Source of the DNA: Fasciola hepatica
Taxonomy: Eukaryota; Platyhelminthes; Trematoda; Plagiorchiida; Fasciolidae
Length of the DNA: 64,000 bases
NCBI GenBank assembly: GCA_948099385.1
Contig: CANUEZ040000129.1
Location: 6,640,501-6,704,500, forward strand
Reading direction: 5' to 3'
How positions within the stretch are numbered: the stretch's first letter is position 1; every line of letters starts with the position of its first letter. A model generated the notes under the pieces. The model worked only from the letters and a program-made list of their open reading frames with translations. It ran no database searches and was not told where the DNA came from. The position numbers and the translations under genes are program-made. This document shows, piece after piece, positions 7,888-36,841 of the stretch.

Positions 7888-9062
7888 AATAAACACTTTG
7901 TCCGAAAAATCCCCCAGAGCACATTTGGAAAACACAAGTTGGCGAACAAGCTCGTTTTCAGTGATTCTTAATCATGCCAATACAACACAATATATAGGAC
8001 TAGATGCATAAGGGATACAGTCAACGAAAATCGTGTCAGGGATCATCGTTCACACCTAGTGTGGTACAGGATTATCAGGAAACCAGGTGTGAATGGACTA
8101 ACACGTTCTCAACATGTAAGCTTTCGGACGTTCGTGGACCTGACGTTGGGTGGTGAGTGGGCCAGGGTAGGTTGAGTGCATGCACAAATTTCTTCTGAGC
8201 ACATAAAGGGGGGTTGTGGAGGCGAATCCCGACCGCTTCCGCTGTGGCCAAGATGCGACTTCTCACCGATCTTGAAAGCCGACCTCGGACCCTATACAGG
8301 GGGCGGAATGCTTGATCCACGTTCACCATGTGATTAGTTTCAGCTAGGTGTGAAACGACTGCGCTGGTAATTGACCTAATTGTTCCAGTCCTCAACCACG
8401 CTGGATGATGCTCACGGATGCGTTCAGACAAGCGTCTGGTCGTGCGGCCGATATACGTTGTTCCACAGGAACAAGTGAAAGAATACACACAAAATGAGGC
8501 TGCAGAAACAGGCACATTGTCTTTTATCCGCAGACACACCGCTGGCTTAGAGGTGAACAAAACACGCAGTTTAGCAGCGTAGAATGTTTTGTTGACGACG
8601 CTCGCCAATCTTCGGTGAATTACATCTGCCAGAGTGTCGCCTTTAAATGGCAGAGAGATGTATACTGATTTCTTTTCAACTACCATTTTCCTTGGAATTT
8701 CTTTATCCAAATGCATTATCCGGTCGACTAGGCGTTCCGGATATCCGTTCTGAATAAAAATATTGCGCACCGTAACAAGCTCTTCTTTTATGGTATCTTC
8801 GGTGCAGATCTTTTTCGCTCTGTTCGATAGGCACATAATTAGATTTATTTTCAATTTGAGCGGTACAAAACTACGGAAGTGGATGTACTGTCCATTCCAT
8901 GTTGATTTTCTGTGCACTGACCGCCGTATTGAGCCATCTTCTCGACGGGTCAAAAATACATCTTATGCATCTAGTCCTATATATTGTGTTGTATTGGCAT
9001 GATTAAGAATCACTGAAAACGAGCTTGTTCGCCAACTTGTGTTTTCCAAATAAACACTTTGT
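7888..9062 (-). mobile_element. Penelope-like element, 5'-truncated, with inverted terminal repeats
   Basis: The 14-base direct repeat AATAAACACTTTGT lies at 7888-7901 and 9049-9062 and looks like a target-site duplication. Inside it, about 90 bases are inverted between the two ends (7925-8012 against 8963-9050). Both contain the core GCGAACAAGCTCGTTTTC and the block CAATATATAGGACTAGATGC. The enclosed minus-strand frame is a Penelope C-terminal region. Inverted pLTRs around a truncated body are a known arrangement in Penelope-like elements. The copy sits in the intron between BRCT1 and BRCT2 exons, in the same orientation as the host gene. Confidence 0.85.
8075..8953 (-). CDS. Penelope-like polyprotein, C-terminal part with GIY-YIG endonuclease
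   Basis: A 292-codon uninterrupted frame. Its first part (STWNGQYIHFRSFVPLKLK, then KKICTEDTIKEELVTVRNIF and NGYPERLVDRIM) is the linker after the reverse transcriptase of Penelope-like elements. It ends with the GIY-YIG-type nuclease: YSFTCSCGTTYIGRTTRRLS followed by ERIREHHPAWL, with the CxC pair just before the TYIG motif as in this family. The C-terminus (EAVGIRLHNPPLCAQKKF) is shared with the relics at 24.4 and 43.5 kb. The reverse transcriptase itself is missing because the frame runs into the inverted terminal repeat at about 8955. The absence of stops suggests a fairly recent insertion. It is not an independent gene. Confidence 0.85.
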   Translation of the reverse strand: MTRREDGSIRRSVHRKSTWNGQYIHFRSFVPLKLKINLIMCLSNRAKKICTEDTIKEELVTVRNIFIQNGYPERLVDRIMHLDKEIPRKMVVEKKSVYISLPFKGDTLADVIHRRLASVVNKTFYAAKLRVLFTSKPAVCLRIKDNVPVSAASFCVYSFTCSCGTTYIGRTTRRLSERIREHHPAWLRTGTIRSITSAVVSHLAETNHMVNVDQAFRPLYRVRGRLSRSVRSRILATAEAVGIRLHNPPLCAQKKFVHALNLPWPTHHPTSGPRTSESLHVENVLVHSHLVS

Positions 9063-16710: not shown

Positions 16711-17035
16711 ACACGTTAACATACTACTTACTATCAACATGAGCGCTTGCACATGCAGCCTCGTTGTTCGTTGGGTTAGCAGTGACCCAGACACAAACAA
16801 CTATGAGAAATCACAGTTGTGATTCATTTGTGGGCTCTTTAATGAAGAGTATCCATTCACACTCCAGACGATTCAAATTAGATTCTAGTGAACATATAAC
16901 ATCGGAGTGTACAAGTATGAAGACGAGTGGGCATAGGAGTACCGAGTACGCATACCTGATGGGCGGCAACAACCGCGAAACCGGTCGTGTGCTTCCGGGG
17001 AAATTTCCTCCACACGTTAACATACTACCTACTAT

Positions 17036-17038
<3 letters not shown>
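16711..17038 (+). repeat. hammerhead-bearing repeat unit, 301-bp period
   Basis: The block ACACGTTAACATACTAC occurs at 16711 and again at 17012, 301 bases apart. Each time ACTATCAA follows. The sequence between is one full unit containing a hammerhead motif at 16950-16992. So a unit end is joined head-to-tail to the next unit, as in tandem ribozyme satellites and retrozymes. The same unit, inverted and about 75-80 percent similar by eye, lies at 20870-21200. Shared blocks include CCTCGTTGTT, TTGGGTTA, AGTATCCATCCACA-like sequence and GTGCTTCCGGGG. Both copies end in a long (TA)n tract. Confidence 0.75.
16950..16992 (+). ncRNA. minimal type I hammerhead ribozyme motif, copy A
   Basis: Stem I is GCATAC (16950-16955) with GTGTGC (16987-16992). 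The core CTGATG begins at 16956. Stem II is GCGG/CCGC around loop CAACAA (16963-16976), followed by GAAA (16977-16980). The very short stem III is ACCGGT, with GTC as the expected cleavage site before 16987. Core position 9 is G instead of the invariant A, so this copy is probably weak or inactive. The near-absent, palindromic stem III is typical of retrotransposon-borne hammerheads that act as dimers. Confidence 0.78.
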
Positions 17039-17092
<54 letters not shown>

Positions 17093-17098
17093 CCGTGT
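17039..17098. repeat. (TA)n microsatellite
   Basis: Uninterrupted TA repeat of about 30 units directly after the hammerhead unit and directly before the RTE LINE at 17099. The homologous unit at 20.9 kb also ends in (TA)n. Confidence 0.95.
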
Positions 17099-19675
17099 CG
17101 GGCAATTCGGTGTCTCTTGCTCGTTGTCAAAATGGCGTTGGCACCGCTCTGACCATAAAAGCTGAGCACCCGTTGTTCAACTGGATACCACTCAGCGATC
17201 GTCTGAGTGCGGTCCGATTGGACAGTTCTGTGCATATCAATAGTAATATACTGAAGCGTGGATGCTTTTTCGTCGTTTCTGTGTATGCCCCAACTGACTA
17301 TAGCTCTCATGAGGCTAATAACGAATTCTAACAGGATTTGTCTCAACTGCTTCACAGCGTGCGCTCTACGGACATATTGGTTGTTGCTGGTGATTTCAAT
17401 GCTCAAGTCGGAAGCCTAGACGAGACGGAGAGGAATACGGGAGGCTGATTTTGCGTTCCAGCCGACTGAACAGATAACGGTGATCGACTCATACAACTAT
17501 GTTCCGACCATGGACTATTCTTAGCAAGTAGAAATTTCTCGCACAAAAAGCGGCACCGACCAACCCGGCGTCCTCCTGCGCCTTCACAGCGCACGAATCA
17601 GATCGGCCATACTGCTATCGGTTACCGATGGCGTGGCTCAATTCAAGACTAAAGATCATTTTAATCTACGTCTGTTGACACTGATCACGATCTTGTCCGC
17701 GCGCGCTTCAACCCACGTCTCGTCGGTGGCCGGAACAACGTTAAGGTCAACCATCTCCCGCAGCTGCCACTGGACAATAACTATTTATCTGCTTCCCATA
17801 TACGATGTTGCACGAAAATGCCTTACACGCCAACTGATTCGAAGGCTGAGAAACGACCGTGAGCAGTGGTAGATTGTGAAGTGAAGGGAGACGGAAAAAG
17901 CTGCAGCGATTGGTAAAAGCCGTAACCTTTCCCATCGAATTAGAAATACCGGTGCACGAAAGCCAGACGTTAGCGAACTGATCAAAGAGGCGGACGGCTC
18001 ACTGATTCAAACTCAGGAGCGTCGCCTAATTCGTTGGGCGGAACATTTCGAGCCGTTTAGTTGGCCTTTATCCACGACATGTTTGCTGACTAGCACGATT
18101 GTTACAGCTTTAGTTGTAGATACCAGTCCTCCATCAGAAGCGGAGGTTCTCTGTGAGATAAACTATTATCAAACGATATAAGGCTACCGGACTGGACGGA
18201 TTATCTACGTCCATTTTCAAACACGGTGGTTCAGCACTGTTACTAAAGTCGACAAAACTCCTCGGTTTGATATGGGAAAAGGAACAACTCCCAAAGAATT
18301 GATGTGAATCCGTGATCGTACCGATTTCAAATAAAGGCGGTAGATCCTACTCTGAAAACCACGGGGGAATAGGTCTGGTTACCATCGCATCCAAACTGCT
18401 TGTTGGTGTTATTCTCTACTGATTATCTAACGCTCCCGAACACTGCTCGCGCGAGAATTAGGTTGAGTTTAGACATGGTCGAGATCGTATTGATTACATC
18501 TTGCTAAAGTGTGTACCAGAGGAATTCATTCCCATCATAAAGTCCCTTTACATGACTAGCCAAAGCAGAGTTTGGGTTTACGGTGATCTTTCACTCGGGT
18601 TCATCACAAAATATGGTGCGTGTCAGGGTTGCCCCTCCCCCCTTTTTAACTTTGTAATTGATATGGCCCTAGAGACCGCGCCCTCGTCAGGTGAGGATAG
18701 TCGCACTGAACTTTTCCCGGGTGGAAAGGTATCAGACCTCGAGTATGCGGACGACGTAGTTCTTCTCAATGAAGATCCAGGTAAGTTGCAAGCTTTTCTA
18801 CACAGCCTGACGGACTGCATAGCGATGTTCGGTATACGTTTTGCACCTAAAAACTGCAAAGTGATACTTCAGGACTGGGTTGGTCCAACGCGAAACCTTT
18901 CAGTGTCTGGAGAGAATATAGACCGGATGGGCAGCTGCATTTCACCGAGTCAGGTATCGGCTGGAGTGTCTTTGCGTACACAGAAGGCTCGTTTAGCTTT
19001 TCCTAACCCGAGTCATTTATGGCGTTGACATGACATCTGTTTATCTATCAAGAATAAAATGTACGCTGCAGCAGTCACGCCAGTGCTTCCGCATGGTTCG
19101 GAGACATGGTCACTACGGCCGGAAGATATATGAGGATTGTCGCTATTTGAACACCGGTGCCTCCGCAGCATTGCTCGAATCTGGTGAGAACACCGCATCA
19201 CCAATTCTGAGGTTCAGCGGAGGGTCTTAGATTCATGAACCGAATTATTAAATGAAACACTTAGGCTCAGGCTGAGACGGTTGAGACGTGTTGCGCATGT
19301 CCCCTGACAGGCATGCAATGTTTTCTGAGGCTTGTAACGGTTGAAAGATAAGTAAGGATGGTGGAAAAAAGGTATGAAAAGCCTAACTAGTGGACTTGGC
19401 CACGAAGGGCTTGTTAGACTTCCTGGGTGAGGTCCAAGAAATCCTCCGACACCCCAGTTGGATAAACTGAAGGATATGACAAAGTGTCGCGATCAGCGGC
19501 GCTCTTGTATCCACAATCGTATCGACTTGATACCAATATTTGTAGTTGTTCTCTTACTCTTTTCATGTTCTTTTATTTTCCATTACTTTGTTTTGAGATT
19601 TCCGCTAGGAGACAGCAACCATAACCACCGCACCCAGTGCATGATTAATGGTTGTCGGAAGTGAACTGGTAACTT
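17099..19675 (+). mobile_element. RTE-like LINE, 5'-truncated, degenerate
   Basis: Plus-oriented non-LTR retrotransposon. The endonuclease starts part-way (QNGVGTALTIKAEHPLFNW), then SVYAPTDYSS, VVAGDFNAQVGSL and DNGDRLIQLCSDHGLFLA. The reverse transcriptase is clear over 18501-18900: ACQGCPSPLFNFVIDMAL and LEYADDVVLLNEDPGKLQAF with the YADD motif intact. The C-terminal tail and T-rich 3' untranslated region (19300-19675) match 1660-2120. Numerous stops and frameshifts lie between the blocks. The same family occurs at 24.96-28.49 and 55.08-59.01 kb. It is antisense to the host gene. Confidence 0.87.
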
Positions 19676-19959
19676 ACTGTATGGACAGAATGAGTCCCAC
19701 ATGTAACCGTAGTCTTGAGTGTTGCGCCGTAATAAATCACTGAACAAAGTTCATATCATGTGTTTTGTGAATGAAGTTTACCCAGTTTTAAAAATCGAAT
19801 TATATGTTTCGACCTCTCCTTCACGAAAACAAAATAATGATGCACGGACGACGGCAGTATGAGTTGAAACAGGGGAAAAAATACTTGTATACAAAGACAT
19901 AGGAACTAGCATAAGCAAGATTACCATATTAATTCTAAGATCAAACAGTATTATGTGGG

Positions 19960-20760
19960 ATTTTTGAAGGATGCAAGCAGTTACATATTTAAAAAGAAAC
20001 GTGGAATACGAAGAAAATTTCTGATAGATCAAGAGACTCCTTCAGCGCGCTGCATCCAACCGAATAACAAGTGCATCAAAGTTGCAGAGCTCCATGCTAC
20101 TGGGTATAATAATGTTCGACGTGTACAGAAGGTATCACAAGCAGCAGGACATACGCCGTTATAAAGGCGAAAGCAGTACCCCGGATAACTGGATGTCATA
20201 TTTCACATGGAGTTGAATGGGTCAGAAATCACATCAAATGGAAGGCTGAATGCAATAGCGTGATATTTGTTGATGAGAAAAATCACTGACGGACAAAGTT
20301 ACTGCATGCGGAAGAGCAAGCTTGACTTCAGCCATCGAGACTTCGGTGGGGTCTGGAGTGCTATTTGTTCCGAACGCTAAATCACTGTGGAGAGTTATCG
20401 AAGATTAGCAAACAGCCGACTCAAGCATCAGAACTTTGAATGGCTTATAATTCCCTGCACTTCCAGCGAGACAACGCCGACACACATACAGCTCACGTCA
20501 GCAAAATTGGAATATTGTACCAAAACCTCAAAATCATCGATTGGTCCACTCAAAGTCCCCATTTTAACCACAATGATAGCATTCAAATGTGCTAACAAAG
20601 TGAGCCCATCTAAACGGAAGAAGCTCCAACGCCATTCACGAACTGAGGTCTTGTATCCTCACCGATTGGCAAAATGTCGATATTAGGACAACCCAAAATA
20701 CTGTAATAATGGCTGATCAATATTTATCTATTCCGAGCAATAAAGAAATTTGTATTTGGT
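19960..20760 (+). pseudogene. Tc1/mariner transposase relic
   Basis: Decayed transposase on the plus strand. A helix-turn-helix-like stretch (VAELHATGYNNVRRVQK) lies near 20080-20130. Then VIFVDEKNH near 20258-20285 (first catalytic Asp) is followed by RDNADTHTAHVSK (second Asp, DNDPKHTSH-type) and IIDWSTQSPHFNHND (degenerate W-SPDLNPIE block) near 20465-20580. Several stops and frame changes. It differs from the copies at 37 and 50 kb, so it belongs to another Tc1/mariner family. Confidence 0.7.
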
Positions 20761-20857
20761 CACCAGGTGGTTGTTTCTATCATAGGGTCAGGGATGTACT
20801 AAATGCTTCTTGCACGCTACAGACACATTATTCGAGACAGAGTCAATTGTCCTAGTT

Positions 20858-20860
<3 letters not shown>

Positions 20861-20900
<40 letters not shown>
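20861..20900. repeat. (TA)n microsatellite
   Basis: Twenty TA units at the end of the inverted hammerhead-bearing unit, continuing into imperfect TGTATGTATAG. Confidence 0.95.
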
Positions 20901-20909
<9 letters not shown>

Positions 20910-21200
20910 AGTAAGTAGTAAGTAAGTGGGTGGAGAAAATTGCCCCGGAAGCACACGATCGGTTTCGTGGTTGGTGCCACACATCAGGTATGCGTAACCG
21001 AAACTCCTGTGCCCATCCATCTTCACACATTCACACTTCATTGCTATATCGTCACAAGGATCTAATTCGAAGCAACACGAATGTGGATGGATACTTTTCA
21101 CTGAAGAGTCCAAAAATGAATGACAACTGTGATTTTTGTTATTTAATCTTGTCTAGGTCACTGGTAACCCAACAAACAACGAGGTTGCATGCGTAGGCGC
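20870..21200 (-). repeat. hammerhead-bearing repeat unit, inverted copy
   Basis: Reverse complement matches the unit at 16741-17040 from GAGCGC and CCTCGTTGTTTGTTGGGTTA (about 21200-21160) through the hammerhead to the CTTACTACTTACTAT tail and (TA)n. It differs by point changes and small indels. No adjacent second unit is visible here, so the tandem arrangement is not preserved in this copy. Confidence 0.75.
20951..20993 (-). ncRNA. minimal type I hammerhead ribozyme motif, copy B
   Basis: On the minus strand: stem I GCATAC (20993-20988) with GTGTGC (20956-20951), core CTGATG, stem II GTGG/CCAC around loop CACCAA, GAAA, short stem III, ATC at the cleavage position. Relative to copy A, stem II shows a compensatory C-G to U-A change. 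Core position 9 is U instead of A, so this copy too carries one damaging core substitution. Confidence 0.78.
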
Positions 21201-21209
21201 TCTCATCGA

Positions 21210-23690
21210 TGCCAAGGCGGTATCCATGACGCGATTGCACGTTAACTGCCTGGAAGATGTTTGAAAGACTTGAAAGACGATCACCTTGACTGCAGTACAC
21301 ATTAATAAAGATGCAGCGAAAAGCTCCGGAATGTACCTTGAAATGTAATGCTCCTGACGTCTGTGTTTAAAGACATTACATCAAACGTCCTCTGAGATCA
21401 GGATGTATGGCCCGGTCAGCTTTACCATCGTCACTTAAGTGCCCCACTGGATGGTTGCCATTTTAAATCATATCAAATGTAAAGTCGTTAGTGTTCGCAC
21501 CCGGGACTATAATGATACATTCCATTGTGTAACGGCGAGAAAACTGCCACATATACTAGGTACAGATGGTAGCCCTCCATCTACCGGAGGTCACTTATCT
21601 AACCCCGTTACCAATCGCAAATAGTTAACACGTGATCCTAGTCATAACTTAACTACTTTCAAGGTATCATTCTATCACATTGTTTCCATTCCACGCAAGT
21701 ATACATGCAATACTGTTTCTTTAAAAGTGTATTTTTACACCTCAAGGAATAACTCATGGACCGATCTACTTTCTTACATCACTAAGTTTTAATTTGCAAT
21801 CTGAAACTGACATGGTCGAATCATTTACACCTTTTATCTCGTCCATCACAATGCATTTCTCATCATATCCGAGAGGAAAGTGACGAGATAAGTGACGTGG
21901 TCCACATCATCCCACACATCTGATTAATAGGTTACCCCAATATCATTATGGGACTTGCGGTGCACTCCGTTAGCTTAAATGTGGAGTTTTGATAGGATGA
22001 TTCGAATCTGGCATTGGACACAAAAGCAGTCACCACAGCGCAACACAGGTGGAAGATTGCCTTCATGGCGCTGGTAAACAGACTAATACAACCATAGGAT
22101 GACTAACATATGGAAGAGGACCGTGAACCAACAGTTGTGAGAGATCTATCAATAGGGATACGTTATCGGCTGATAAGTTAATCTGTTGCTTCAAAGGTAG
22201 ATTATGAATAGATCTTTAGTCTCACCAGCAGAGAAAAATGACAGCTGGTGGAAATAGAATGTAGTAGATGGCATAACAGGCGGCCAGGATGTGTAGGTCT
22301 TCATTAATACCGACTAATCGTTTTCCGGTGCTGAAGAGAACCAGTATACCGTTTTCCGATCCAGATGCACGCCGTGTTTTCTGTTACAGTAGGTGGTCAT
22401 CGGTAAACCCACGTCCTGCACCGTGACCACACAGACACTCATGAAAGCACTACAGTGATTCAATGGTCCTAGTTTTAAAAAAGTGACGGTAATTTTTTGT
22501 CTTATCATGTGATCTGCGCACGACGTAAATTACGATAGATCAAGGTTATCACCACCATGGTCAAGCAGTCACCGCTTTACACATAGCTGAAGAAACGAAG
22601 TAATTCAAAAAACCACCCACAGACGTTTCTCAATCTTCAGTCGCCGAGTTCATTGAGTGTCAGTCATAACGAACGGTGGTTATCGTAGTGCTTGCACATG
22701 GATGACCTGAGGTTCGTGCGTGAAACGTGGAGTCCAAAAGACAGCCAACCAAACAAAGATTCATCAATCCCACACGCTACTCGCAAATAATTACGTGATG
22801 TACACATTCTATATGGTGCTATGATTTCAATCTGCTGCTCTGAGCGGACTAGATGTCGTTTTCCGATCATCACCGCCAGACCAGTGATAATTGAGGTCCT
22901 GCGACCCCCCTCCACAATAATATCGAGTCACACACACCCCAGACGCCTTTCCTGTATTCCCCGTGCATCGTGGACCGTTGACCTGACGACTCCGTCCTCA
23001 TTAGCGGAACAGCCGAGTCAGTCAGTATTAGGTCACCGTACACATTCTCGTTTAAGCGCAACTGTGCATGCTACTCCTCCAAGGGCTGGGCTCACTCGGC
23101 TATCCCTAAGACTATCTCACCAGTGTGTGTTAAGTCGGTGCACGCATGCACCCACAGACAAAGAAAGCAACTATCACTTTCTCACGTCAATCCGTAACGG
23201 TACATCTCAAAAACGACGATTCATCCACAGACTGCCATTACATTGGTGTTACCTCCCCTTTAGTCACGTAGACCGGCTGTTCTGCCCTTTAAAAACCCAA
23301 ATGGGGTAGAGTGGCATAACAGTAAGACGTAGTTCACAATGCAATTGGCAATCGAAGTCGGTTCGGACTTGAAAAAGATCGTGGGCTATTGCTCATAGGT
23401 CTCAGACTTAGGCTCAGCCGTAATATGGGTCAATCTGAGGATTGTCAGTCACGTGCGATCCCACTCACTGGACTTTAAGGTCTAATTATATCGTCAATGT
23501 GACGTCTAAAAGGCAGAAGTGACTGAGTAATTGAGATACGAAAAACCAAGGGGAACGGAGACAGTCCAGAAGGTGAAACTGTAACCTGGATGCAAAGATA
23601 AACTGAAAAGTCATAACTATACAGTGATGACGGGCCCCTGACGGACTCATCATTAGTACTATATACAGAGGGGAAAAAATGATGGCGCTA
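21210..23690. other. intron sequence, nothing recognised
   Basis: Intron downstream of the basic linker exon. A 162-codon plus-strand open frame (22821-23309) has no recognisable motif. On the minus strand a splice-site-bounded frame at about 22230-22310 is hydrophobic and out of phase. The missing linker exon could be here, but I could not identify it. Confidence 0.35.
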
Positions 23691-23692
23691 AC

Positions 23693-23837
23693 CTTTGTCA
23701 TGCATTGGCTGAGTCAGGCCTTCCTCGTCTGATTCTGAACCGGTTCGGCATCGGACACGTCGGGAAGGCGTACGCGGGACAGATCGACCAGGTCGTCCGT
23801 GTCGATTAGTTAGTCGAACCCGTTTGGATGGTGGAGT
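23693..23837 (-). CDS. TP53BP1: 53BP1-like exon: basic linker with NLS-like motif
   Basis: Excellent acceptor (TTGTCTTGCTGTTACACTGCAG) and a weaker donor (AAAG|GTTAGC). Phase 0 at the start fits the donor of exon 32996-33173. The frame reads TPPSKRVRLTNRHGRPGRSV, then PRTPSRRVRCRTGSESDEEG. PxxKRVRL is a classical monopartite nuclear-localisation pattern, and the Arg-rich then acidic stretch corresponds in position to the basic NLS region between Tudor and BRCT domains of 53BP1. It ends with one base over, which does not match the next identified exon (14551). Assignment rests on position, phase and composition. Confidence 0.65.
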
Positions 23838-24156
23838 CTGCAGTGTAACAGCAAGACAACCGACTGATACGCATAAATGAGATCAGACTAAAGCTGAGGG
23901 AAATTTCACTCAAAATGGAGAAAATTTTTCTTTCAATCAGTAATTTCGTTTGCCGGATTACTCTTCATGTAAAGATTTATGAGATGTGTTAGCGGCAAAT
24001 GTTGTCCTCGGCAAAACACGCGAATTGATGCTTTGAAAATGTATAGGAACGAAAAAAGGGGCGAAAGATTATCATACTCTGATAAACTTCGACCGGCCTA
24101 GTGGATTGAGCAAAGCAATTCGCAACACTTGAACACCAGCGCATTACATGCGAAGT

Positions 24157-24800
24157 GCCGAAGAAGCTCATTTTCAGTGGTTCTCGCTCGTGTCCTCAAA
24201 TCATTAAATGAGTATTGTCAACTAGGACTGGAACAACATGTGGTGGAGTGGTGTGGAATGAGTCGAGAATCGGCAAGGTTCACACGCGTGTTCCAGACCT
24301 ACCTCTGAACCGAAAGTTAGTGTAATTATTGTGTTCGAAGATGGAGTGTGAACCAAAGGAGCCTGGATCTTGCACACACTATTTTAGGCGCATAACAGAG
24401 GACTGTAGAGACGAATGCCTACCGTTTCCGCTGCGACCAGGATATGATGCCTCATCAATCTTGACCGCTGTAAATCAGACAAAACGATCCGATCACATTC
24501 ACTGAGTAATAAGAGGTGGACAGCGCTCGTGACGTGGACTATTTTCCGGGCTGAATGTAAAATGATTAACGGTGACCTGTGAGTAACACGAACATGGGAT
24601 AGGAAACGTGGCCAACGGAGCTGGCCGCCGATGAAACCTATCGAATCCACAATAAAGCATTATTGATGTGGTCACGCGCGGTGACCAGTAACCTGTTGCA
24701 TATGCTTTCGTTTTATTACATCAATGACGTCTCCTGATTGGTCAGAAAGAGACTTTCGTCATCACTATCGTACAGCCTTAAAACAGCAGGCAAGCCCACT
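24157..24800 (-). mobile_element. Penelope-like element fragment (C-terminal region)
   Basis: A degenerate pLTR core (AAGAAGCTCATTTTCAGT) lies at 24161-24178. A minus-strand frame at 24384-24650 ends ILVAAETVGIRLYSPLLCA, matching the C-terminus of the Penelope frame at 8.1 kb. On the right, 24690-24770 (GACTGGTCAGAAAGAGAC-type sequence) matches the pLTR at 30.6 kb in the same orientation. Together with the reverse transcriptase part at 28.5-29.1 kb it may be one Penelope copy split by the intervening LINE. Confidence 0.7.
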
Positions 24801-24959
24801 GATCACTGTTTTTCTCACAATGTTGCATGTAAAAGTAGGAAGAACGAATTGACAAGATGGACACGGGTGGGGAAAGGAAAGAATGTCCTAGTAGCCAACA
24901 CAATGAGTATATAGTCTAATTGTACAAACACACATTGATCAATAATTCTTATTCGACGG

Positions 24960-27900
24960 GAAGTAACAACATGATCGCTACTGTTCACCGCTCACAGTCA
25001 TATCCTTCAGTGTATCCAGCCAACCGGTTGATAGATCTTTTGGACCCCAACCACGAAGATGTGAGACACCTACTTTTCCTAAGTTCGATGGACATTTTCT
25101 CATTCCCCGCTGCCACGTCATCTGTGGGCCTCCGTGTGGTTTCTTCCAATCCCTAGGAGGAACGGAGAATGGGGCACGGTACGATAGACGTGTTTGCCAT
25201 ACGTAACACGTGCCCCAAGCAACGAAGTTTACTAAGCTGGATACGCTGTGACAGAACGTTCTCCGAATAATACCCAATACTCGCTTTCTGACCTCATCAT
25301 TGCTTACTCGGCTATTCCACTCAATCCTAGCGATACTACGTAAACATCGGTGGTCGAAAACCTTAAGACGACGAATATCTTCCGTACTCAGACCCCAAGT
25401 CTCGCAACTATACAAAACTGAACGCACCGTGACACAGTACACACAACCTTTCTATTTCAGTGAAATATCAGGTCGACGCCACAAGCGTACGCCGCTCGGG
25501 CCTTGGATATGTGAGCGCTCACTCCCACTACAGCGCCCCCATCCGTCGTCAAGCTGCTGCCGAGGTAAGTGAAGCAATCAACAATTGCCAGCACCTCTTC
25601 ATCGAGCATCAAACTCGGAATCGTTGACGTCCAGTCTTGAAACATCACTTTACACGTTGAAGGTACAAAGCGCATGCCAAATGGAGCTACAGCTTGTGCA
25701 AGTCTATCTAGTGCACGTTGAGCATGTCCCGTGCACTCGAACAAGCAAACAAATTCGTCCGCTCAGTCTAGGTTACACAGCTTCTCACTATTTCCCAGTA
25801 GGACGCCCACATCCTGAAGGTTTCTCAGGGCATTCTGCATTATCTCGTCCATGACGACGTCGAGCAGGAATGGGGACATGGGACATCCCTGTCGAACACC
25901 GCTGGTCGTTCCGAACCGACTGAACAGTTCACCGTACATCCTCACGTGGCCAGAAGTATGAAAATACAATGATCTCAATAGATTCACGAACTTCTGGGGG
26001 GATACCTTTTCGATGAAGAGCACTGAAAAGAGCTGTTCAACCAACTGAATCGAAAGTGCCTTTCAAGTCTAAGAAAACTATCACTGTCGGTCGACGATGC
26101 GTGTGGCGCATTTCAAGTGGTTGGCGTAGAGTAAAAATCAGATCGATGCATCCTCGACCTAGGCGGAATCCGGCCTGTTGTTCGCGAGCCGGTGTCAGAC
26201 GACGCAGCAAAATCGAGGCTAGTACCTTAGTGACTGTCGGAATTAAGCTAATCCCACGATGGTCACCAGTCACTGGGTATTCCCTTCTTGAAGATGGGAA
26301 CAACCAATCACTCGCCTCATAATAACGGAATACGCTCCTCGTCCCAAATGTCAAGGAGCAAGGTGTTGTGATTCTATCAAAGCATTTCCATCCAGTTTGA
26401 AAATAACTGGGGGAAGTTCGTCGGGACCGGCCGCTTTCCACGCTTTACTAACCGAACACATGACTCCACTTCCGCTTCCGATGGGGGCTCAAGTGATACC
26501 GCTCAAGGAATCACAGTTGTTGACATCAGAGTAACTACATTAGCGCGTGGCCAGTTAAACTGCTCCCTGAAGTATTCGGCCCAGCCTTTGCTATTTGCCA
26601 TGAATGGGTTCTCCATTTCTATCGCAAATCGTTTCACCGATCGGGGTTCGCCGTCCACCAGTTGTTGCGAATAAGTTTGAACAGCCTTTGACTGCAGCTG
26701 CTACTTTCATTTCTTCGGCTACCTTGATCCACTTATTTTCGAGATCCTTTTAAGGCTTTTCGTATCTTGCTTTTGTATCTTACTCATCTCCTTACAGTTC
26801 GAGAGCTGACGCTTTTGCTCCAATATACTAAACGACTCTTGCGAAATCCAGTGTCTTTGATGGACATCGGATCTATGAATTCAGGCGAAACCTGCTGCAA
26901 AGTGCATCGCCTGTTTGATATGGACCCAATGCTCATCTACATTAATGTTCGTCGTAGTACCTGGCTCATAACTGGTGCGAACTTCTGGATCACAAATACG
27001 TTGCACGGCTAACCGGGTTTGCGACGATGACCATGCAGCTGGAGTAGTAATCGCAATAAAACTAGTGCATGGTCAGACTCTACGTACATGGACCAGTAAG
27101 ATCTACAGTTCTGAACAGAACTGCGCCACCGGTAGTTTACTGCGATATGATCAATATGGCTTAGAGTACCGGAAGAGTTTGGGTGTCACTTCGCCGTGCG
27201 ACGCGAGTTGTGTCAGAAATTTGTACTAGACAAGAACAACCGATTGTCTACACAAAATCGGAGAATTCTATCCCCGTTGTCTGTACGCTCAGCGGGTAAA
27301 GAATAACGCCCATCTAAACAAGTTTCTGATGCATTAAGTTCACCAACTTGTGCATTGAAATCACCTGCTAGCACTACTATGTCAGAACCTTTGCCCCTAC
27401 GAACGAGGGTGGCGAGTTCACCATAGAATTCATCCTTCTGTGTGTCACAGATGTAGTCTGTTGGGGTGTATGCCGAGATCACAAACAAATTGCGCTTAAC
27501 ACAACCATCCTTTCGAACGCCGACTGACCCCTGGAGTCTCACAGCACATAAACCACCATTAACTGGGATCCAGTCTAAGAGGGCATCCTCAGTCCTGTCG
27601 ATCAAGACTATTCCTACACCACGCTGGTCGACACCTCGAGCTACTTCGTCTCCTGAGGTGCGCAGAAAATACCTCGATGAGATACCAGGAGCAGTTAGTT
27701 GAATCATACTGCTCGAATCCTGGATACGCGTTTCACTCACGCGGCAGACATCCATCTTCAGAGAGTCATTGTGAAGGCTAGGCACGCCTGCTGACCGGCC
27801 TGCATGAGTGTATGCACGTTGAAGGAGCCGAGGGTCGGAGCCTGACGAGGCTTGAGAGAATGTGAGTTACCAGACTGATGATTATTCACACTATTTGACA

Positions 27901-28490
27901 ATGAACTGTTGCGAGTATAGAGCGGGCTGTCACTGGGACCATTATGGGTGAATAGAGGGGCAATGAGAGTTGGTTGGGCACAAAAGACAAAGGTTGAATA
28001 AAAGAGAGGGAACTCTGAGCAGTAGCCCACCTATCACTACCCACTCCGCTCAATGCAATAGGCAGCGCGGTCCTGATTATCCGGCGCGACGACCGATACA
28101 GTATGGAGTTCATTCTATTTATGCAGTTCATGGGAAATTTTGGACAGGTACTGCTAGGGCATCCAGCTGATAAGCAGGAGGACGATTAGGGTTCTTATCC
28201 AAAGCCTTTAGTTCTAACAAGAACCTATCCGCAAGGCAGCGATTGGCTGAGTGGAAGCCCATTTGTTTGGACCAACTATCCTTCCACCAATTTTACCGAC
28301 TGAGTTGCCACCTCAAATCGACCCTCAACCGAAAGGATCAGGAGACTGGACTTTGTCTGGCCTCTACCCATTGACCTGTGAGGCATGATTGCATCTCCGG
28401 CTTGAAGAAACCATCCTTTATAGCTCTTCGAGTCATAGAGGCACACAAGCCATCACACCATGGCAAGGTGCATTCTCGTCGTGACATCTA
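24960..28490 (-). mobile_element. RTE-like LINE, near full length, degenerate
   Basis: Minus-oriented element of about 3.5 kb. The 5' region (28488-28030) matches that of the copy at 59.0 kb block by block, which suggests an intact 5' end. The endonuclease runs 27990-27213: GSFNVHTLMQAG, DVCRVSETRIQDSSSMIQL, ISAYTPTDYICDTQKDEF, VVLAGDFNAQVG and DNGDRILRFCVDN, with one frameshift near 27760. The reverse transcriptase runs 26441-25763: QQAGFRLGRGCIDLIFTLRQ, FLDLKGTFDS and GVRQGCPMSPFLLDVVMDEI. Its active-site loop is decayed (stop plus ADE in place of YADD). The C-terminal domain (FDHRCLRSIARIEW) and tail end near 24978. It lies in the same orientation as the host gene, within the Tudor-to-linker intron. 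Confidence 0.88.
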
Positions 28491-28494
28491 ACGA

Positions 28495-29160
28495 TGGCAT
28501 CCGTCACTCTTTCACATTCAGGTCTTTGACACAGCTTATGAATTCAAATGTATCTTTTGGGCTGTGTTTTGATATTTTCGGTCTAACCGGTTCCAACAGA
28601 ATTGTCAACCATTTGGCCACTGCATGGTACGGGGAATCGCACGAGACAAGGATAGCTCTTGAGGGGACTGCATTCTTATGAATTTTCGGTAGTCCATACA
28701 ATCTGAGAATGATGATTCCTGGAGGCTGTATCCTTTCGAAAGTAGGTGATTCTATTAGGTTATTTTGTTAAAGACGTCGGAAAATGTCGGACACAAACTT
28801 CTCTATTTGTTGTATTTTATCCTCCTGTTGACATTTTCGCGAATTCGCATGTGTCATTCAAAATGGCTTCCATTTTTGTGATATAGTCTGAGTTATTTAG
28901 GAGTACTATACCTGAACCCTTGTTCGGCTTCGATATAATGATGCCAATATTCTTTTGTAATTCTCTCAGACGTTTTATGTTCTGTCCTCAATAGCCCACT
29001 TGTTGATGGCTTAGCCGTATGATATTGATAGCGTGTATTCATTAGGTGTACTTGAAATTCTGAAGTTCCAACTGTGACGAAGGAAGTAAGCTGGACAACT
29101 GGGTGTAAAAATTCTCCCTCCACCCTACAACAGGCCACAGATCAGATGAATATTGACATA
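28495..29160 (-). pseudogene. Penelope-like reverse transcriptase, N-terminal relic
   Basis: Minus strand: GIIISKPNKGSGIVLLNNSD followed by YITKMEAILND near 28930-28840, the first conserved block of Penelope reverse transcriptases. Then YGLPKIHKNAVPSRAILVSC and SPYHAVAKWLTILLEPVRP at 28700-28600, the YGxPKxHK and SPxYxxAKxL blocks. At least two frameshifts separate them. The relic stops at about 28490, exactly where the minus-oriented RTE LINE begins. Confidence 0.8.
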
Positions 29161-29169
29161 ATACGTACG

Positions 29170-30490
29170 AAAGGGTGAACACTGCACTGGCGATTACGGA
29201 ACCTGAATTATCCCAAATCCAGAACGCCACGATGGCAGATCGGTGTCTACAGTCTCTGAAGGAAGTTATCACCCAAGGTTGCCCGGAAGACAAAAGAACT
29301 CTATTAGCAGAAGTATCACCTTACTTCAAATTTCGTGATGAGCTAACATTTTTAGGGGAGAGTGTCTGGCGGTTCCGCAAGCTTTTCACACGCAGGTATC
29401 AATACAGATATCACCCGAACCACAGAAACGTGCTACTGACCTGATATGACAGAACAGGTAAAACAGCTGGCGGCAAACTGCGAATCATGCAGGCAATTCG
29501 ATCAACGACAAACGAGAGAACCGATGGAGATGCGCCCAATACCTGACCGTCCTTGGCAAATTGTGGTGTTGGAGATTTTCTACCATGGGACAGACAGTTA
29601 TCTAGTGACAGTTGATAACTTCAGTGATTTATTCGGAGTCGACCTTATGAGAACAGAAATAACTGCAGAAATTATCAACAAGATGCGAGCAAACTTTGCG
29701 TGACACGGACTCCCGATTCGAGTGATTTTTGATGGTGGTCCTTGGTTTCACAGCACGGAATTCCAGCAACTTTCGGAGATGTAGCTTTTCAGCCATCACA
29801 TCACCAGTCCTTACCACAGTCAATCCAGCAGAAAGGCAGAGTGCGCTGTCAAACAGGCGAAAAAGATATTCAAGAAGTGCAAAACTGAGGGTAGCCATCC
29901 GTTCATCGCTCTGCTTCAGCTTCGAAATATGCCTCTGGAAACGGTGGGAACAAGCCCGACGAAATGCCTATTTGGAAGACGGACGAGCAAGATCCTACCC
30001 GTTTCTGCTGGGTTACTTGATCCAGATATCGTAGCGCCTTCGGGAATCAAACTGAAACTGAAGAAGCAAATGGCGGTGCAAGAAAGATTTTACAATCGGG
30101 ACAGCAAACCACTGCCTCTACTCAGGCCAGGTGACACAATCTGGATTCAACCAACTGAGCCGACAGAAAAATCCCGGGCGAGAGGAGAGATACTATCGTG
30201 CGTAATAATGAAATCACACCTAATACGCTCTGGAGGTCGTCCGGTAAGGGGGAATAGAATAAATCTGAGAAAATCAGGACGCGATGATGAAGAAGAAGCA
30301 AACATAGGAGGCGACAACAAAGGTGAGGAAGAGGAAATCGAAAAAGATAAGAAAGTGACTGAAGCAGATAGCACCATGCAATCATCGATCGGAGAGGAGC
30401 ATTCACCGTCTAGAACTCGGAGTGGCCAAAGTTATCAGTCGATGTACAAGCAGAAGTTTCTCAAAACAGGAAGGATATGTTGGATATGCT
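29170..30490 (+). pseudogene. Ty3/gypsy-type integrase region, decayed
   Basis: Plus-strand remains of an LTR-retrotransposon pol. The zinc-binding end (CESCRQFDQRQTREPM) is near 29470-29530. RPWQIVVLEIFYHGTDSYLV follows; the first catalytic Asp position appears as Glu. Then TVDNFSDLF, a stop, VIFDGGPWFHSTEFQQL (second Asp), and SPYHSQSSRKAECAVKQAKK (Glu). LRPGDTIWIQP and an acidic C-terminal region lead to about 30490. The layout is that of K02A2.6-like metazoan gypsy elements. No gag, protease or reverse transcriptase and no LTR pair are visible, so this is an isolated fragment. Confidence 0.78.
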
Positions 30491-30538
30491 TTTAAATGTA
30501 CGAAAATCCCACCGAACACGTTTAGGATACAACAGCGT

Positions 30539-30720
30539 GGCGAACAAGCTCGTTTTCAGTTATTCGTATTCATACCGATACATAATATATGCTTCTGGTT
30601 TACCATATCAATGCGTCCCCCGACTGGTCAGAAAGAGACTTTTATTTCACACATTATAAATCGAGCAATCTGATTGGTGTGAGAGGCTTTTTAAACTACC
30701 GAAGAGCTAGAACTTATTGA
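30539..30720 (+). repeat. Penelope-like terminal repeat (pLTR), solo
   Basis: Begins with the core GCGAACAAGCTCGTTTTC at 30540 and continues through CGACTGGTCAGAAAGAGAC near 30640, a block also present at 24.74 kb. No Penelope coding frame is attached in the expected orientation. Confidence 0.6.
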
Positions 30721-31229
30721 GATTTCCATCTAGTACGCTGTAACAATATACTGGTTGCTTTTCCCGAAGAACTGACTTTTGACACAGCAAAATTGATTTC
30801 ACGTTATCTTTAGGGAGCTACCACCATGACTACTCTTGCGGTAAAGACCTTCCCGAGCGACTACCACAATGAAGAAATCTTATCAAATTTATGCGCAACA
30901 CACGCAGTTTCAGTATTTCTTTCATTTTCAGTATCCAGTCAATCGTTTCAGCTTACACACCCGACACCCTAGACCTAACTAATGTATTACTGAAGTATTA
31001 GTCTAACGAGCTCTAAGCAGAGGTACTAACGATCTCCACGACAGATAATGAGCACATTCCAATGGCAGTACGTACATTTTGCGATAAAAGTGGTTTCTTC
31101 TCCGAATCAGTTCCTTTTTGCACCTCATCGATCGGTTGTTTGCGTTTCCGTTCACGCTTGCCAAACACCATGTTCGTCAAACTGATCTGTCAGGAAGAAA
31201 TCGAAAAGGAGGAATTCAAATGTAGTTAT

Positions 31230-31920
31230 CAATCTCCGAAAAAAAACGAAGTTGGTCCGGCACTTCTTTCAATTATTAGCCTCCCTTTTCTGGGCTCTGG
31301 TTTTGGTTTCAGTCTCAAAACATCGTTTATTCTACGAGAAACTGAATAGAAAGTGCAGACAAACAGAAGTTATCTCTGAAAATCATACAGACGGAGAAAC
31401 AGTTCAAATGCAACCACACTACTGACCGCCGTGACCAGCCATATCACTTATGGTATCCAACCATCCGATGAACGGATCTCACGAACCCCTACGTGAAAAC
31501 CTAAGACGTCTGAATCAGGATCCTCATATCTTTTGTCTTGCCACAGAATAACTACTTTGACTTACCTTCCGACCACTATGTGCCTCGGTGGGCAATTCAC
31601 ACTGAGGAAGTTTACCTATAAGTAAGCGTAACACATTCCAATCAACCTAATCCACTTAGATTCACCTCTTTTTCCGCGGGCGTAAATCTGGTTCCCAACA
31701 CTAACGCCTAACCTCAGAATTGCTGATACGGTGTTCCCATTATATTCGAGCGGAACTGCGAAGATGTTTATACTCAAACGTCGACAGTAATCGCGCACCT
31801 TCTGCCCGTAACAGTCAGTGTAGACATGACACAATCGAATGTCACGCCGGCGCCACAAGTGCTTCAAACTAGTCAGAACGTGGGCATGAGAAAGTCTCAT
31901 AGTCCTGATTTTCGTGATCA
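31230..31920 (-). mobile_element. RTE-like LINE, 3' end fragment
   Basis: Minus strand near 31870-31835 reads LKHLWRRRDIRL, a block of the RTE C-terminal domain. The DNA over 31860-31600 aligns with 34085-33900 (GCTGATACGGTGTTCCCA and CGGTGTTCGGGC-like blocks), and 31260-31550 aligns with the RTE 3' untranslated region at 33.55-33.72 kb. Frameshifts throughout. Confidence 0.72.
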
Positions 31921-32367
31921 AAGCATAATGCGTCCTAACAAACAACAACGTCAGGAAGAACAACATACTCGAAAGCGCACGATTGTTTCCAATAATTCCT
32001 AATCGTGCTCCGACGTTCGCTGCGCTGAAATTCATTGTTTTAGTTTACGAAGGTTCGCACACCGCCTTTTGACCAATGATGGTCGGACGCTATAGGCTTC
32101 TGGCTATCAGTCATAAGGTGATTCTTCCTAATTGATTCCGTGTTAACTTTCAGAACGAGGACACATGGTCCCAAGCTTGGATTTTCATCATAAGTATTAT
32201 GGTGTATGGTGTTAACCAACGAAATGACTCTGGAAGAATAACATTGTGATTCTATAAGTGGAATCTTCGTTAATGCAAGTTCCTTCCGACTCAGATGAGA
32301 TTACAACCATAAACCGACTGTGGAATGCTCAAGTACAGGGATAATTTTGCAGAGGAGTACAGGTTAC

Positions 32368-32410
32368 GCATACCTGATGAGCAGCAACAACCGCGGAACC
32401 AGTCGTGTGT
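32368..32410 (+). ncRNA. minimal type I hammerhead ribozyme motif, copy C
   Basis: Same 43-nt architecture as the copies at 16.95 and 20.95 kb: stem I GCATAC with GTGTGT, core CTGATGA complete, stem II GCAG/CCGC (one mismatch) around CAACAA, GGAA instead of GAAA (core position 13 changed), short stem III ACCAGT, GTC at the cleavage site. Similarity to the other units covers only GGAGTAC through TTCCGGGG, so most of the unit is missing or diverged here. Confidence 0.7.
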
Positions 32411-32449
32411 TTCCGGGGTTATCTTGTCCTCGTCTCGATGCTATACCAC

Positions 32450-32560
32450 ACTATTAAGGGCGTAAATTCTAACAATTAAGTCTGAGGTATGAGGCTCGAA
32501 TCCCGCCACCCCCCGTCATCCATCGGTACGGACGGCACCGCCATCGTGCTCGGTACTTTA
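32450..32560 (+). repeat. tRNA-derived SINE fragment
   Basis: GGCTCGAATCC at 32493-32503 is close to a pol III B-box (GGTTCGANNCC) and is followed by CGCCACCCCCC. An A-box is not clear. Probably the 3' part of a tRNA-like SINE head. Confidence 0.4.
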
Positions 32561-33489: not shown

Positions 33490-34090
33490 TTTGACCTTAC
33501 AACCTCACAAGCGAGTCAGTTTCACTTTATTCAACCACTAACCTCGCACTTCTGTGCTCTGGTTTTGGTTGTTACCTTCCGGCATCGTCCAGTAAACAGC
33601 AGAGGGAATAGAAGCATAGTGATAAGGATCCAAAAAGTCAAAGTATCAAGCGGTAATCAAGACGACAAGATTAGAGTCCGAATGCAACTACGCCACTGGG
33701 CGCGACACCTAGACATATCACTGTCTCCTGCTATTTGATAGGCGGATCATATGGACCCCAACTTGGAAGTCTAACACGTCCTACTCGGTCAAGCCCATTG
33801 GTCAAGGTTTTCATACCTTTTTGCCATGTCATGGACTGACCACCTTGACCTACCTTCCAATCACTACCTGCTTTGCAGAGCAGCGTACGCCAAGGAAGTT
33901 TATCCGTGGGCATGTGTAACACGTCCCAACCACCTTAACCTGTTTAGATTCAGTACTTGATCGAGAGACTGACCTCTGGCTCCCAAAACCTCACAACTAA
34001 CCTCAGCATTACTGATACGGTGTTCCCACCATACTCGGACAATGCTACGAAGACATCGGTGCCCGAACACCGACAGCGAATGCACCCATC
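33490..34090 (-). mobile_element. RTE-like LINE, 3' end fragment
   Basis: Minus strand: HRCLRSIVRVWWEHRISNAEV then LNRLRWLGRVTHAHG (34070-33900) and MPTDKLPWRTLLCKAGSDW, MTWQKGMKTL and GLDRVGRVRLPSWGP (33920-33740). This is the C-terminal domain of the RTE family. The 3' untranslated region continues to about 33490 and matches 55080-55330. 5'-truncated and frameshifted. Confidence 0.8.
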
Positions 34091-34943
34091 AATCACGTAC
34101 CAGCCACACCGAAGAGAACTGGATATAATGGTAATGCCACAACAAGTCGACAGGTTCTTTGGAATTACGAAACGTTTTGTTCTCGCCTCGGTAGATGCAA
34201 CGTCTTTGGTAACACTCGATGGGAAGATTTACAACATTTTGACGTTATGCTATCAGACCGACAGTGATACCAGACAAGTAATCGCAGAAAAACGCGGTGG
34301 GTTTGTTAACATTAGATGCACTGTATGCTTTGCTCTCCCCAGCACCACTTCGATTCCAACCAGTACTATCATTATGATTTAAGTACGCGTCACTAATTCT
34401 CGAGGTACCATGATTCCCCGATATAGTAATTGATTCTTTCCTATCTAAGCCACGGAAACCACTGGCTGTCACCTTCAATGACGTTGTCCCTGCAGTGCTT
34501 TCACATGCGAGATCAACTAATCCAACCACACTCCTGGGCATCTCAACCAGCCCCAGTCTTGCGTCCTCAAGTTATGCAGTGGCTATGTTTTGCTTCTGAA
34601 AAGCGAACTATCGATCGCCTACTGAACCATTAGTAGTACTTGCAGTTCGTGTCACGTTTACTACGACGATCGAAGAGAACAACAGAGACGCCTTGACCCA
34701 CGCAGACTGTCGCAGTCTGTTGTACTTTTCCTGTTGAATTCAGCTCATCCGTGATGGGAGTACGCACTGCGAGATTTCGTGGGCGGAGGACGAGTGACCA
34801 ATGCCAAATCCATCACACATTTTTGGGGGAACGGTGCGAATGGTGCCTTCACTCAAAGTCAAAACGATACGGTATGCGACAGAAGTACATCATTTGCCGA
34901 GAAACCCATCCACCTTTCGAAATAATAAAAGTGTGGCACATTA

Positions 34944-35278
34944 CACCTTTTCCCATCAAGCTTTGGCCAAAATCTGCAATGCTTTAGCAACGACCCATCA
35001 TTCTTTAGCCTTGACGTACAACCTTTAGCCACGCCGCCACGAGCCAGTCAGATTAAAAGTATGGGATTATTATGATATCAAGAAATATTGGAACAATTTA
35101 TTTTTTAAATAAAAATTGGTGTTGCAAAACTGGTCGAATAAATGAGAAAATGTTACGATCGTATACTGCGCAGTTGACTGTGGTAACAGTATTAAATGCT
35201 ACACCGCAAATTGACTGGAGAGGGTTTAAATGATGTGCCCATGTCGTCGATCCATGTGGAACAGCCCGTAGGACTGTT
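34944..35278 (+). repeat. left terminal inverted repeat with phased CTTTAGC motifs
   Basis: Carries CTTTGGC at 34961 and CTTTAGC at 34982, 35003 and 35023, spaced 21, 21 and 20 bases, mirrored in the right repeat. Such helically phased subterminal motifs are usual for transposase binding. Confidence 0.85.
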
Positions 35279-35339
35279 GTATTGCTATTGAACTAGTTTT
35301 TAATGTGCTACAAAATATCAAGAACTTAAAGCAGCAAAA

Positions 35340-36200: not shown

Positions 36201-36504
36201 TGCCTGACTGCCTCCGAACGAAATATCAACCAATCGACAATGAGTCTCCTTATACAAGGGTAAAGTTTCACAAACAAGCAGTCCTGTAAAACAAATCCGT
36301 AGTGTAACAAACGGTACATTTGCAGACAAATATTGAGACTCAATATGATGGAAAAAATAAACGTGTGGTTGCTTATACTACTAGATATTTGGATACACTG
36401 ACAGTCCGGGGATAAAACACAAAGTCATTGTAAGTACACCGCCATCAATGTCATTCGTTCACTCATGCTGCAACAGCCGAAACCATTGCTATCACTTAAA
36501 ATGT

Positions 36505-36839
36505 AACAGTCCTACGGGCTGTTCCACATGGATCGACGTCATGGGCACATCATTTAAACCCTCTCCAGTCAATTTGCGGTGTAGCATTTAATACTGTTAC
36601 CACAGTCAACTGCGCAGTATACGATCGTAACATTTTCTCATTTATTCGACCAGTTTTGCAACACCAATTTTTATTTAAAAAATAAATTGTTCCAATATTT
36701 CTTGATATCATAATAATCCCATACTTTTAATCTGACTGGCTCGTGGCGGCGTGGCTAAAGGTTGTACGTCAAGGCTAAAGAATGATGGGTCGTTGCTAAA
36801 GCATTGCAGATTTTGGCTAAAGCTTGATGAGGATAGGTG
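36505..36839 (-). repeat. right terminal inverted repeat with four phased GCTAAAG motifs
   Basis: Reverse complement of 34944-35278. GCTAAAG lies at 36754, 36774, 36795 and 36816, spaced 20, 21 and 21 bases, that is about two helical turns. Confidence 0.88.
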
Positions 36840-36841
36840 TA

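What the first reader, a model, noticed from the sequence alone, without database searches (positions are those of the whole stretch)
16950..32410. Three 43-nt hammerhead ribozymes with covariation and one or more defects each
Copies at 16950-16992 (+), 20951-20993 (-) and 32368-32410 (+) share stem I, core, stem II, CAACAA-type loop and a tiny ACCGGT stem III. Stem II changes from GCGG/CCGC to GTGG/CCAC, a compensatory change. Each copy carries a different core substitution (position 9 G; position 9 U; position 13 G), so an intact ancestor can be inferred. The architecture matches self-cleaving motifs of retrozymes and Penelope elements, and of the Schistosoma SM-alpha satellite.
Basis: partly seen in the sequence, partly recalled or inferred. 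Interest (0 to 1): 0.85.

Follow-up and report, generated by a model that had tools for sequence, protein, structure and literature searches.

The report
Decayed hammerhead-ribozyme retroelement copies in flatworm DNA
A stretch of what is probably fluke DNA holds three decayed copies of a roughly 300-letter mobile element that once made an RNA able to cut itself; such elements are known in many animals, but the ends of these copies hint at how they are inserted.

Summary
Three type I hammerhead (HHR) motifs lie at 16950-16992 (+), 20951-20993 (-) and 32368-32410 (+). The first matches Rfam Hammerhead_HH9 at E = 7e-6; a model of the three finds no fourth in the window. They are not isolated motifs: all sit near the 3' end of one ~300-nt repeat. 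Copy 2 is 79% identical to copy 1 over 295 nt; copy 3 is older and co-linear. Copy 1 begins with 27 nt of its own 3' end, one 301-nt period upstream, as expected of a circular or multimeric RNA template. Copies 1 and 2 run into two of the window's three long (TA)n arrays. This fits a metazoan non-LTR retrozyme, with the weak palindromic stem III of newt and axolotl HHRs (copy 1), in a probable trematode. The claimed covariation is one base pair and not significant. Each copy has one core substitution, so all three are probably slow or dead. Genome-wide copies, the decisive test, were out of reach: the genome search did not complete. Verdict: new member of a known kind, with a testable hint that Penelope-type machinery sets its 3' end.

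The parts
16950..16992 (+). HHR core of copy 1 (with outer stem I: 16940-17000). Expected cleavage between 16986 and 16987. Core deviation at position 9 (G). Stem III stretch ACCGGT is fully palindromic.
   Evidence: cleavage site from the known HHR architecture (recalled)
16739..17039 (+). Copy 1, one 301-nt unit, HHR near its 3' end, about 53 nt of 3' tail after the cleavage site
16712..16738 (+). 27 nt identical at 25 of 27 to 17013-17039 (copy 1's own 3' end), 301 nt upstream: remnant of a preceding unit
17038..17092 (+). (TA)n array abutting the 3' end of copy 1
20951..20993 (-). HHR core of copy 2 (outer stem I: 20943-21003). Position 9 is U; stem II GTGG/CCAC; stem III ACCGAT.
20908..21204 (-). 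Copy 2; 79% identical to copy 1 over 295 nt; no preceding-unit remnant seen
20860..20910 (-). (TA)n array abutting the 3' end of copy 2
32368..32410 (+). HHR core of copy 3 (outer stem I: 32358-32418). Position 13 is G; stem II A.C mismatch; stem III ACCAGT.
32142..32457 (+). Copy 3, old and diverged, co-linear with copy 1; no (TA)n array follows it. Ends approximate.
8075..8962 (-). Penelope-like element, later part of its ORF, apparently 5'-truncated: candidate type of autonomous partner. Not shown to act on the HHR element.
   Evidence: 97 homologues, several with an RT domain, one named GIY-YIG endonuclease by its source; nearest named: Paragonimus westermani, 63% over 78%; Pfam itself gave no match to this frame

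Best explanation
Three dead or nearly dead genomic copies of one non-autonomous, non-LTR retroelement of the metazoan retrozyme kind, about 300 nt per unit, carrying a type I hammerhead near its 3' end. Proposed cycle: a source array is transcribed into multimers (inferred). The hammerheads, probably as dimers through the ACCGGU of stem III, cut the RNA into units of about 300 nt (inferred; only energies were computed). Units are ligated into circles, or multimers are used directly (inferred). A reverse transcriptase supplied in trans starts at a fixed point about 53 nt downstream of the ribozyme cleavage site, at AT-rich DNA, and sometimes runs past one full unit before stopping (the anatomy of copy 1 shows a run past the unit end; the enzyme is unknown). 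After insertion the copies decay; each now has one core substitution.
For: One shared element in three places and both orientations (the upstream part of copy 3 scores 243 against 170.7 +/- 22.4, 0 of 300 real background stretches as high). HHR recognised by Rfam. Own 3' end repeated 301 nt upstream in copy 1. This repeat is element sequence rather than a target duplication: copy 2's 3' end matches it (0.0002-0.0006 of 5000 background stretches as good), copy 3's weakly (0.04-0.05). The ribozyme cut site is internal in each copy, so insertions did not come from linear RNA ending there. A 301-nt circle folds at -84.3 kcal/mol, z = -3.1 over 60 shuffles. HHR more conserved than body in copies 1/3 (87% against 72%, p = 0.014). 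No sign of coding. Published metazoan retrozymes have type I HHRs, repeats of about 150-450 bp, no LTR and GC under 50% (PMC7229834); the copies here have GC 0.42-0.46.
Against: No full tandem dimer in the window, whereas published retrozymes occur as tandem repeats. The paired fraction of the circle (0.61) is that of shuffles (0.59) and below the >70% reported for metazoan retrozyme RNAs. HHR-over-body conservation is not significant for copies 1/2 (p = 0.13) or 2/3 (p = 0.15). Target-site duplications: longest word shared by the two flanks is 8, 7 and 5 nt in copies 1-3, reached by 14, 36 and 284 of 300 random pairs, so none convincing. The minimum-energy folds of the cut-out motifs are not the hammerhead. 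No RNA evidence. Three copies only. Copies 1 and 2 differ at 62 of 295 positions without a single indel, which plain neutral decay does not lead one to expect.
Confidence: 0.8

Rival explanations
1. An ordinary SINE-like element, copied from a linear read-through transcript. The hammerhead is a passenger or processes the 3' end, and no circle is involved. The 27-nt repeat of copy 1 comes from a tandem pair in the source locus.
For: Shared 3' end, varying 5' ends, single units. Sm-alpha and Sj-alpha of schistosomes are described as SINE-like with HHRs (PMC2770079 passages). In the Anolis Penelope element, ribozyme mutants did not change insertion in vitro (PMC11167929). An A-box-like match with one mismatch stands at the same place in all three copies, but 1703 of 2000 random 300-nt stretches hold such a match.
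Against: No tRNA; no B-box match within 3 mismatches on the element strand of copies 1 and 3 (box motifs recalled). The upstream 27 nt matches the copy's own 3' end better than copy 2's, which fits a circle (or a very young tandem).
Confidence: 0.3
2. The 27-nt repeats flanking copy 1 are a target-site duplication of a LINE-type insertion into a (TA)n-bordered site.
For: Near-identity of the two 27-mers (25 of 27). Nematostella HHR repeats have 15-bp duplications (PMC4918200 passage).
Against: A like sequence stands at the 3' end of copy 2, at another locus, but not at its 5' end.
Confidence: 0.1
3. The hammerheads are kept by the host for a regulatory role (as proposed for intronic HHRs of amniotes).
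For: Best Rfam family is HH9, which I recall as a mammalian intronic HHR.
Against: Each copy has a core substitution and lies in a dispersed repeat. A passage of PMC6155905 says HHRs of retroelements from trematodes to lower vertebrates and of amniote introns are alike anyway.
Confidence: 0.02
4. Chance or convergent hammerhead-like motifs.
For: A one-mismatch scan also gives one unrelated site.
Against: Homology along the whole element and Rfam E 7e-6.
Confidence: 0.01

Closest known systems
Metazoan non-LTR retrozymes (Cervera and de la Pena 2020, PMC7229834; parts 1-3 of 6 of the text and the discussion read)
   Same: Type I HHR, ~300-nt unit, no LTR, GC under 50%, sign of head-to-tail units, host also carrying a Penelope-like element
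   Different: Single units here apart from the 27-nt remnant, long (TA)n right at the 3' end of two copies, lower predicted self-pairing; no RNA data
Newt satellite 2 / axolotl HHR_Amex1 (PMC7229834 results, PMC6155905 passages)
   Same: Stem III of one pair closed by a palindromic tetraloop (A-CCGG-U in copy 1), described as cutting better as a dimer
   Different: Host is a probable trematode; the repeat body was not compared with theirs; two of three copies lack the palindrome
Schistosoma Sm-alpha / Sj-alpha SINE-like elements (passages of PMC2770079 and PMC4918200, one section of PMC8490949)
   Same: Flatworm, SINE-like repeat with type I HHR
   Different: Sm-alpha copies carry a tRNA-Gln; no tRNA here. 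Sequences not compared
Penelope-like elements with HHRs (Frangieh et al. 2024, PMC11167929, main text read)
   Same: Reverse transcription starts inside the template, downstream of the HHR cut site, at AT-rich target DNA, leaving a short tail; the window holds a Penelope fragment
   Different: In Anolis the HHR lies at the pLTR-ORF junction and is minimal; this element is non-coding with a canonical HHR; distance from cut site to end differs (about 53 nt against 85-92 nt, worked out from the paper's numbers)
Rfam RF02275 Hammerhead_HH9
   Same: UUAC internal loop, similar loop II, core and stem layout
   Different: 37.5 bits at best, below the 52-bit gathering score; shorter stem III

Membership tests
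Hammerhead ribozyme, type I | Three helices round the CUGANGA...GAA core, open end at stem I, cleavage after NUH | tested here: inconclusive
   Layout met in all three, with GTC (copies 1, 3) or ATC (copy 2) at the site; but each core has one substitution. Activity not testable here.
Hammerhead ribozyme, type I | Reaches Rfam gathering score of an HHR family | tested here: not met
   37.5, 27.6 and 24.5 bits against 52 for HH9; of overlapping families of one clan only the best is shown
Metazoan non-LTR retrozyme | Non-coding unit of 150-450 nt with type I HHR and no LTR | tested here: met
   301-nt unit. Copy 1 is stop-free in one frame, but copy 2 has a stop there, same-residue codon changes are rarer than random (485 of 500 at least as high), and 217 of 2000 random stretches are as open
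Metazoan non-LTR retrozyme | Head-to-tail tandem units | tested here: inconclusive
   27-nt partial second unit in copy 1 only; no full dimer
Metazoan non-LTR retrozyme | Highly self-paired unit RNA (over 70% paired) | tested here: not met
   Energy z -3.1 but paired fraction 0.61 against 0.59 in shuffles; one decayed copy folded
Metazoan non-LTR retrozyme | Circular and linear unit-length RNA in tissue | not testable with these tools
   No RNA data held
Sm-alpha-type SINE | tRNA-derived portion | tested here: not met
   ARAGORN 0 tRNAs in the window; decayed relics could be missed
Penelope-like element | RT plus GIY-YIG ORF with pLTRs in the element | tested here: not met
   The 301-nt unit has no room for it and no coding sign; the Penelope fragment (7700-9300 searched) has no Rfam HHR at E up to 10

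The most novel reading that the evidence does not exclude
The element is a retrozyme whose 3' end is fixed by Penelope-type internal initiation: reverse transcription begins in a tail about 53 nt after the hammerhead cut site, primed at nicked (TA)n DNA, on a circular RNA, so that a second lap copies the same end again at the 5' side. If so, the suspected tie between animal retrozymes and Penelope enzymes is written in the insertion ends and can be counted in any genome.
Probability: 0.3. Interest if true: 0.6.

Novelty: new member of a known kind. Interest (0 to 1): 0.4.

Why it matters
How retrozymes re-enter the genome is open: the discussion of PMC7229834 proposes LINE or Penelope enzymes acting on RNA circles, as a hypothesis. 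Copies with a fixed 3' end after the ribozyme, (TA)n at that end and an overlap of the unit with itself would give a signature countable in public genomes. They would also place the newt-type palindromic stem III in flatworms.

Tried and rejected
Covariation as proof of function: too thin, one pair. A full preceding unit upstream of copy 1: score 228 but 20 of 300 real background stretches as high, so only the 27 nt stand. Copy 3 as a separate element sharing only the HHR (my first reading): rejected. A coding role of the unit: copy 1 is open in one frame, but the substitution pattern is not coding there; another frame shows an excess of same-residue codon changes (6 of 500 random sets as high) but is full of stops in both copies. 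HHR in the Penelope fragment: none. Rfam mir-1277 hits (4 of the 7) are (TA)n arrays. Relatives elsewhere: three viral contigs and one genome contigs pattern scans gave 0; those collections hold viruses and prokaryotes, so this says little. A+C richness of the 3' tail: 27-nt ends at 0.67, 0.63, 0.56; 8.6% of window 27-mers reach the first value, so suggestive at best (the copy 2 tail there was cut about 7 nt short). Host gene search: the frame 45677-46447 gave two unnamed relatives with PF13358. Pfam on nine frames: 0 families. Papers: four wanted ones not held.
Full report
WHAT IS THERE. Aligned without gaps over 78 columns, mean column identity is 90%. The layout is a type I hammerhead with a six-pair stem I, an internal loop UUAC/GUAC on the 5' side, a further outer stem I, a four-pair stem II with loop CAACAA or CACCAA, and a stem III of one A-U pair around four bases. 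Rfam's best family is Hammerhead_HH9: 37.5 bits, E = 7e-6 for copy 1 and 24.5 bits, E = 0.11 for copy 3 in the full window, copy 2 not listed at E up to 1; 27.6 bits, E = 2.5e-5 for copy 2 when 151 bases were given. None reaches the 52-bit gathering score. A model made from the three finds 3 of 3, which match by construction, and nothing else above 11.5 bits with filters off. Each copy departs from the recalled HHR core once: position 9 G, 9 U, 13 G. PMC8490949 (section on HHRs read) says that core changes can abolish or slow cleavage, and its own candidate with a core change was inactive. PMC3088659 (section 8 read) reports that rare natural core variants exist and that some keep low activity, so 'dead' is likely, not certain.

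COVARIATION. Of 16 pairs, one changes on both sides in one sequence (stem II, C-G to U-A) and 91.7% of cells pair. For four of the five measures 164 of 500 shuffles do as well, for the fifth 500 of 500; the structure slid by +3 columns has two such pairs, though fewer cells pair (43.8%). With three sequences this is no proof. Copy 3 breaks stem II at one pair. The firm evidence is homology plus the family match.

THE ELEMENT. The HHRs are part of one repeat. Copy 2 (minus strand) matches copy 1 over 295 nt at 79% without gaps. Copy 3 looked at first as if it shared little beyond the HHR, but its upstream part aligns co-linearly with copy 1 (about 32142-32335 to 16715-16917), score 243 against 170.7 +/- 22.4 in 300 real stretches of the window, none as high. 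Against letter shuffles it is 0 of 100 with copy 1, but 5 of 100 with copy 2. HHR (70 columns) against the rest (aligned columns, gaps left out): 86% against 77% (copies 1/2, p 0.13), 87% against 72% (1/3, p 0.014), 81% against 72% (2/3, p 0.15). So a modest excess of conservation of the ribozyme, significant in one of three comparisons. GC of the copies is 0.455, 0.438 and 0.424. Copy 1 happens to be open in one frame, but nothing speaks for coding: copy 2 has a stop there and the changes are not of the coding kind.

ENDS. 16711-16740 repeats 17012-17041 at 93% over 30 nt; as 27-mers, 25 of 27. The offset is 301. The 3' end of copy 2 matches the same 27-mer (0.0002-0.0006 of 5000 random stretches as good), that of copy 3 only weakly (0.04-0.05), so the 27-mer belongs to the element's 3' end, and copy 1 starts with the end of another unit. 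Copies 1 and 2 then run directly into (TA)n arrays; the window has three arrays of this kind. In a uniform placement model two or more such contacts arose once in 1,000,000 trials; that test was chosen after seeing the pattern. Copy 3, the most diverged, has no array. The cleavage site is internal in all three, with about 53 nt after it in copies 1 and 3, so the inserted copies were not made from linear RNA ending at the cut. A circle, or an uncut multimer, is needed. Convincing target-site duplications were not found.

MECHANISM. Retrozymes (PMC7229834) are transcribed as oligomers, cut by their HHRs, circularised probably by host ligase, and thought to be reverse transcribed by LINE or Penelope enzymes (discussion). 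The weak palindromic stem III is described there for axolotl HHR_Amex1, which cuts poorly alone and better in dimeric constructs. Nearest-neighbour energies lean the same way: the dimer hammerhead is lower than two monomer hammerheads in all three copies (-32.7 against -12.4, -16.9 against -10.0, 5.8 against 16.0 kcal/mol), most in copy 1, the only one with 6 of 6 stem III pairs (4 of 6 in the others). But other folds are lower still in all three (cofold -48.3, -37.9, -40.1). Tertiary contacts are ignored. PMC11167929 (main text read) shows for an Anolis Penelope element that reverse transcription starts inside the template, in an AC-rich stem-loop 111-118 nt into the ORF, with the HHR cut site at 26, on AT-rich cleaved DNA, leaving a tail. 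The element here ends about 53 nt after its HHR cut site, beside (TA)n in two of three copies, with A+C of 0.67, 0.63 and 0.56 over the last 27 nt. The same paper found that HHR cleavage was not needed for insertion in vitro. The analogy is inference from three copies; the window's own Penelope fragment (8075-8962, minus) is truncated and shows no HHR.

HOST. Of the 97 relatives of the Penelope ORF, the top three are unnamed; the nearest named is Paragonimus westermani (63% over 78% of the query). Two of the named ones bear bacterial labels (Aeromonas, Streptococcus), likely contamination; the others that name an organism are flatworms, among them Sparganum, Spirometra, Trichobilharzia, Opisthorchis and Schistosoma. 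A non-schistosome trematode is the best guess, not proven.

WHAT WAS NOT POSSIBLE. The host genome search, which would settle intact copies, copy number and 3'-end precision, did not complete in 25 tries (list in Tried and rejected). My paper searches on HHRs and flukes showed no title on such an element in Paragonimus or Fasciola; only listings were seen, only a part (10 of 826, 20 of 27, 10 of 583), and the library is open-access only, so this is no claim of absence from print. PMC7229834 already says that platyhelminths have such repeats.

Noticed in passing
16741-17035 (+) and 20908-21202 (-): Copies 1 and 2 differ at 62 of 295 positions with no indel at all, and the differences fall unevenly by position modulo 3 (20, 12, 30), although no frame looks coding. 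Unexplained.
   Followed up: partly
7923-8012 and 8962-9051: The Penelope-like fragment lies between 90-nt inverted repeats that are 100% complementary, as if a recent insertion carried an inverted copy of its 3' end.
   Followed up: partly
34939-35283 and 36500-36844: 345-nt inverted repeat, 98% complementary, 1216 nt apart: a fold-back or DNA-transposon-like unit of about 1.9 kb.
   Followed up: no
43168-43271 and 43590-43693: 104-nt inverted repeat, 95% complementary, 318 nt apart: MITE-like.
   Followed up: no
45677-46447 (+): 256-aa open frame whose only two relatives found (31-33%) carry PF13358, a DDE-type domain as I recall it.
   Followed up: partly
33624-34075 and 55213-55657; 1807-2111 and 19366-19666: Dispersed repeats at 76-90% identity, probably LINE pieces by the look of nearby frames; Pfam gave no match to the nine frames tested.
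   Followed up: no
3618-3674: The third long (TA)n array; no hammerhead element next to it.
   Followed up: partly
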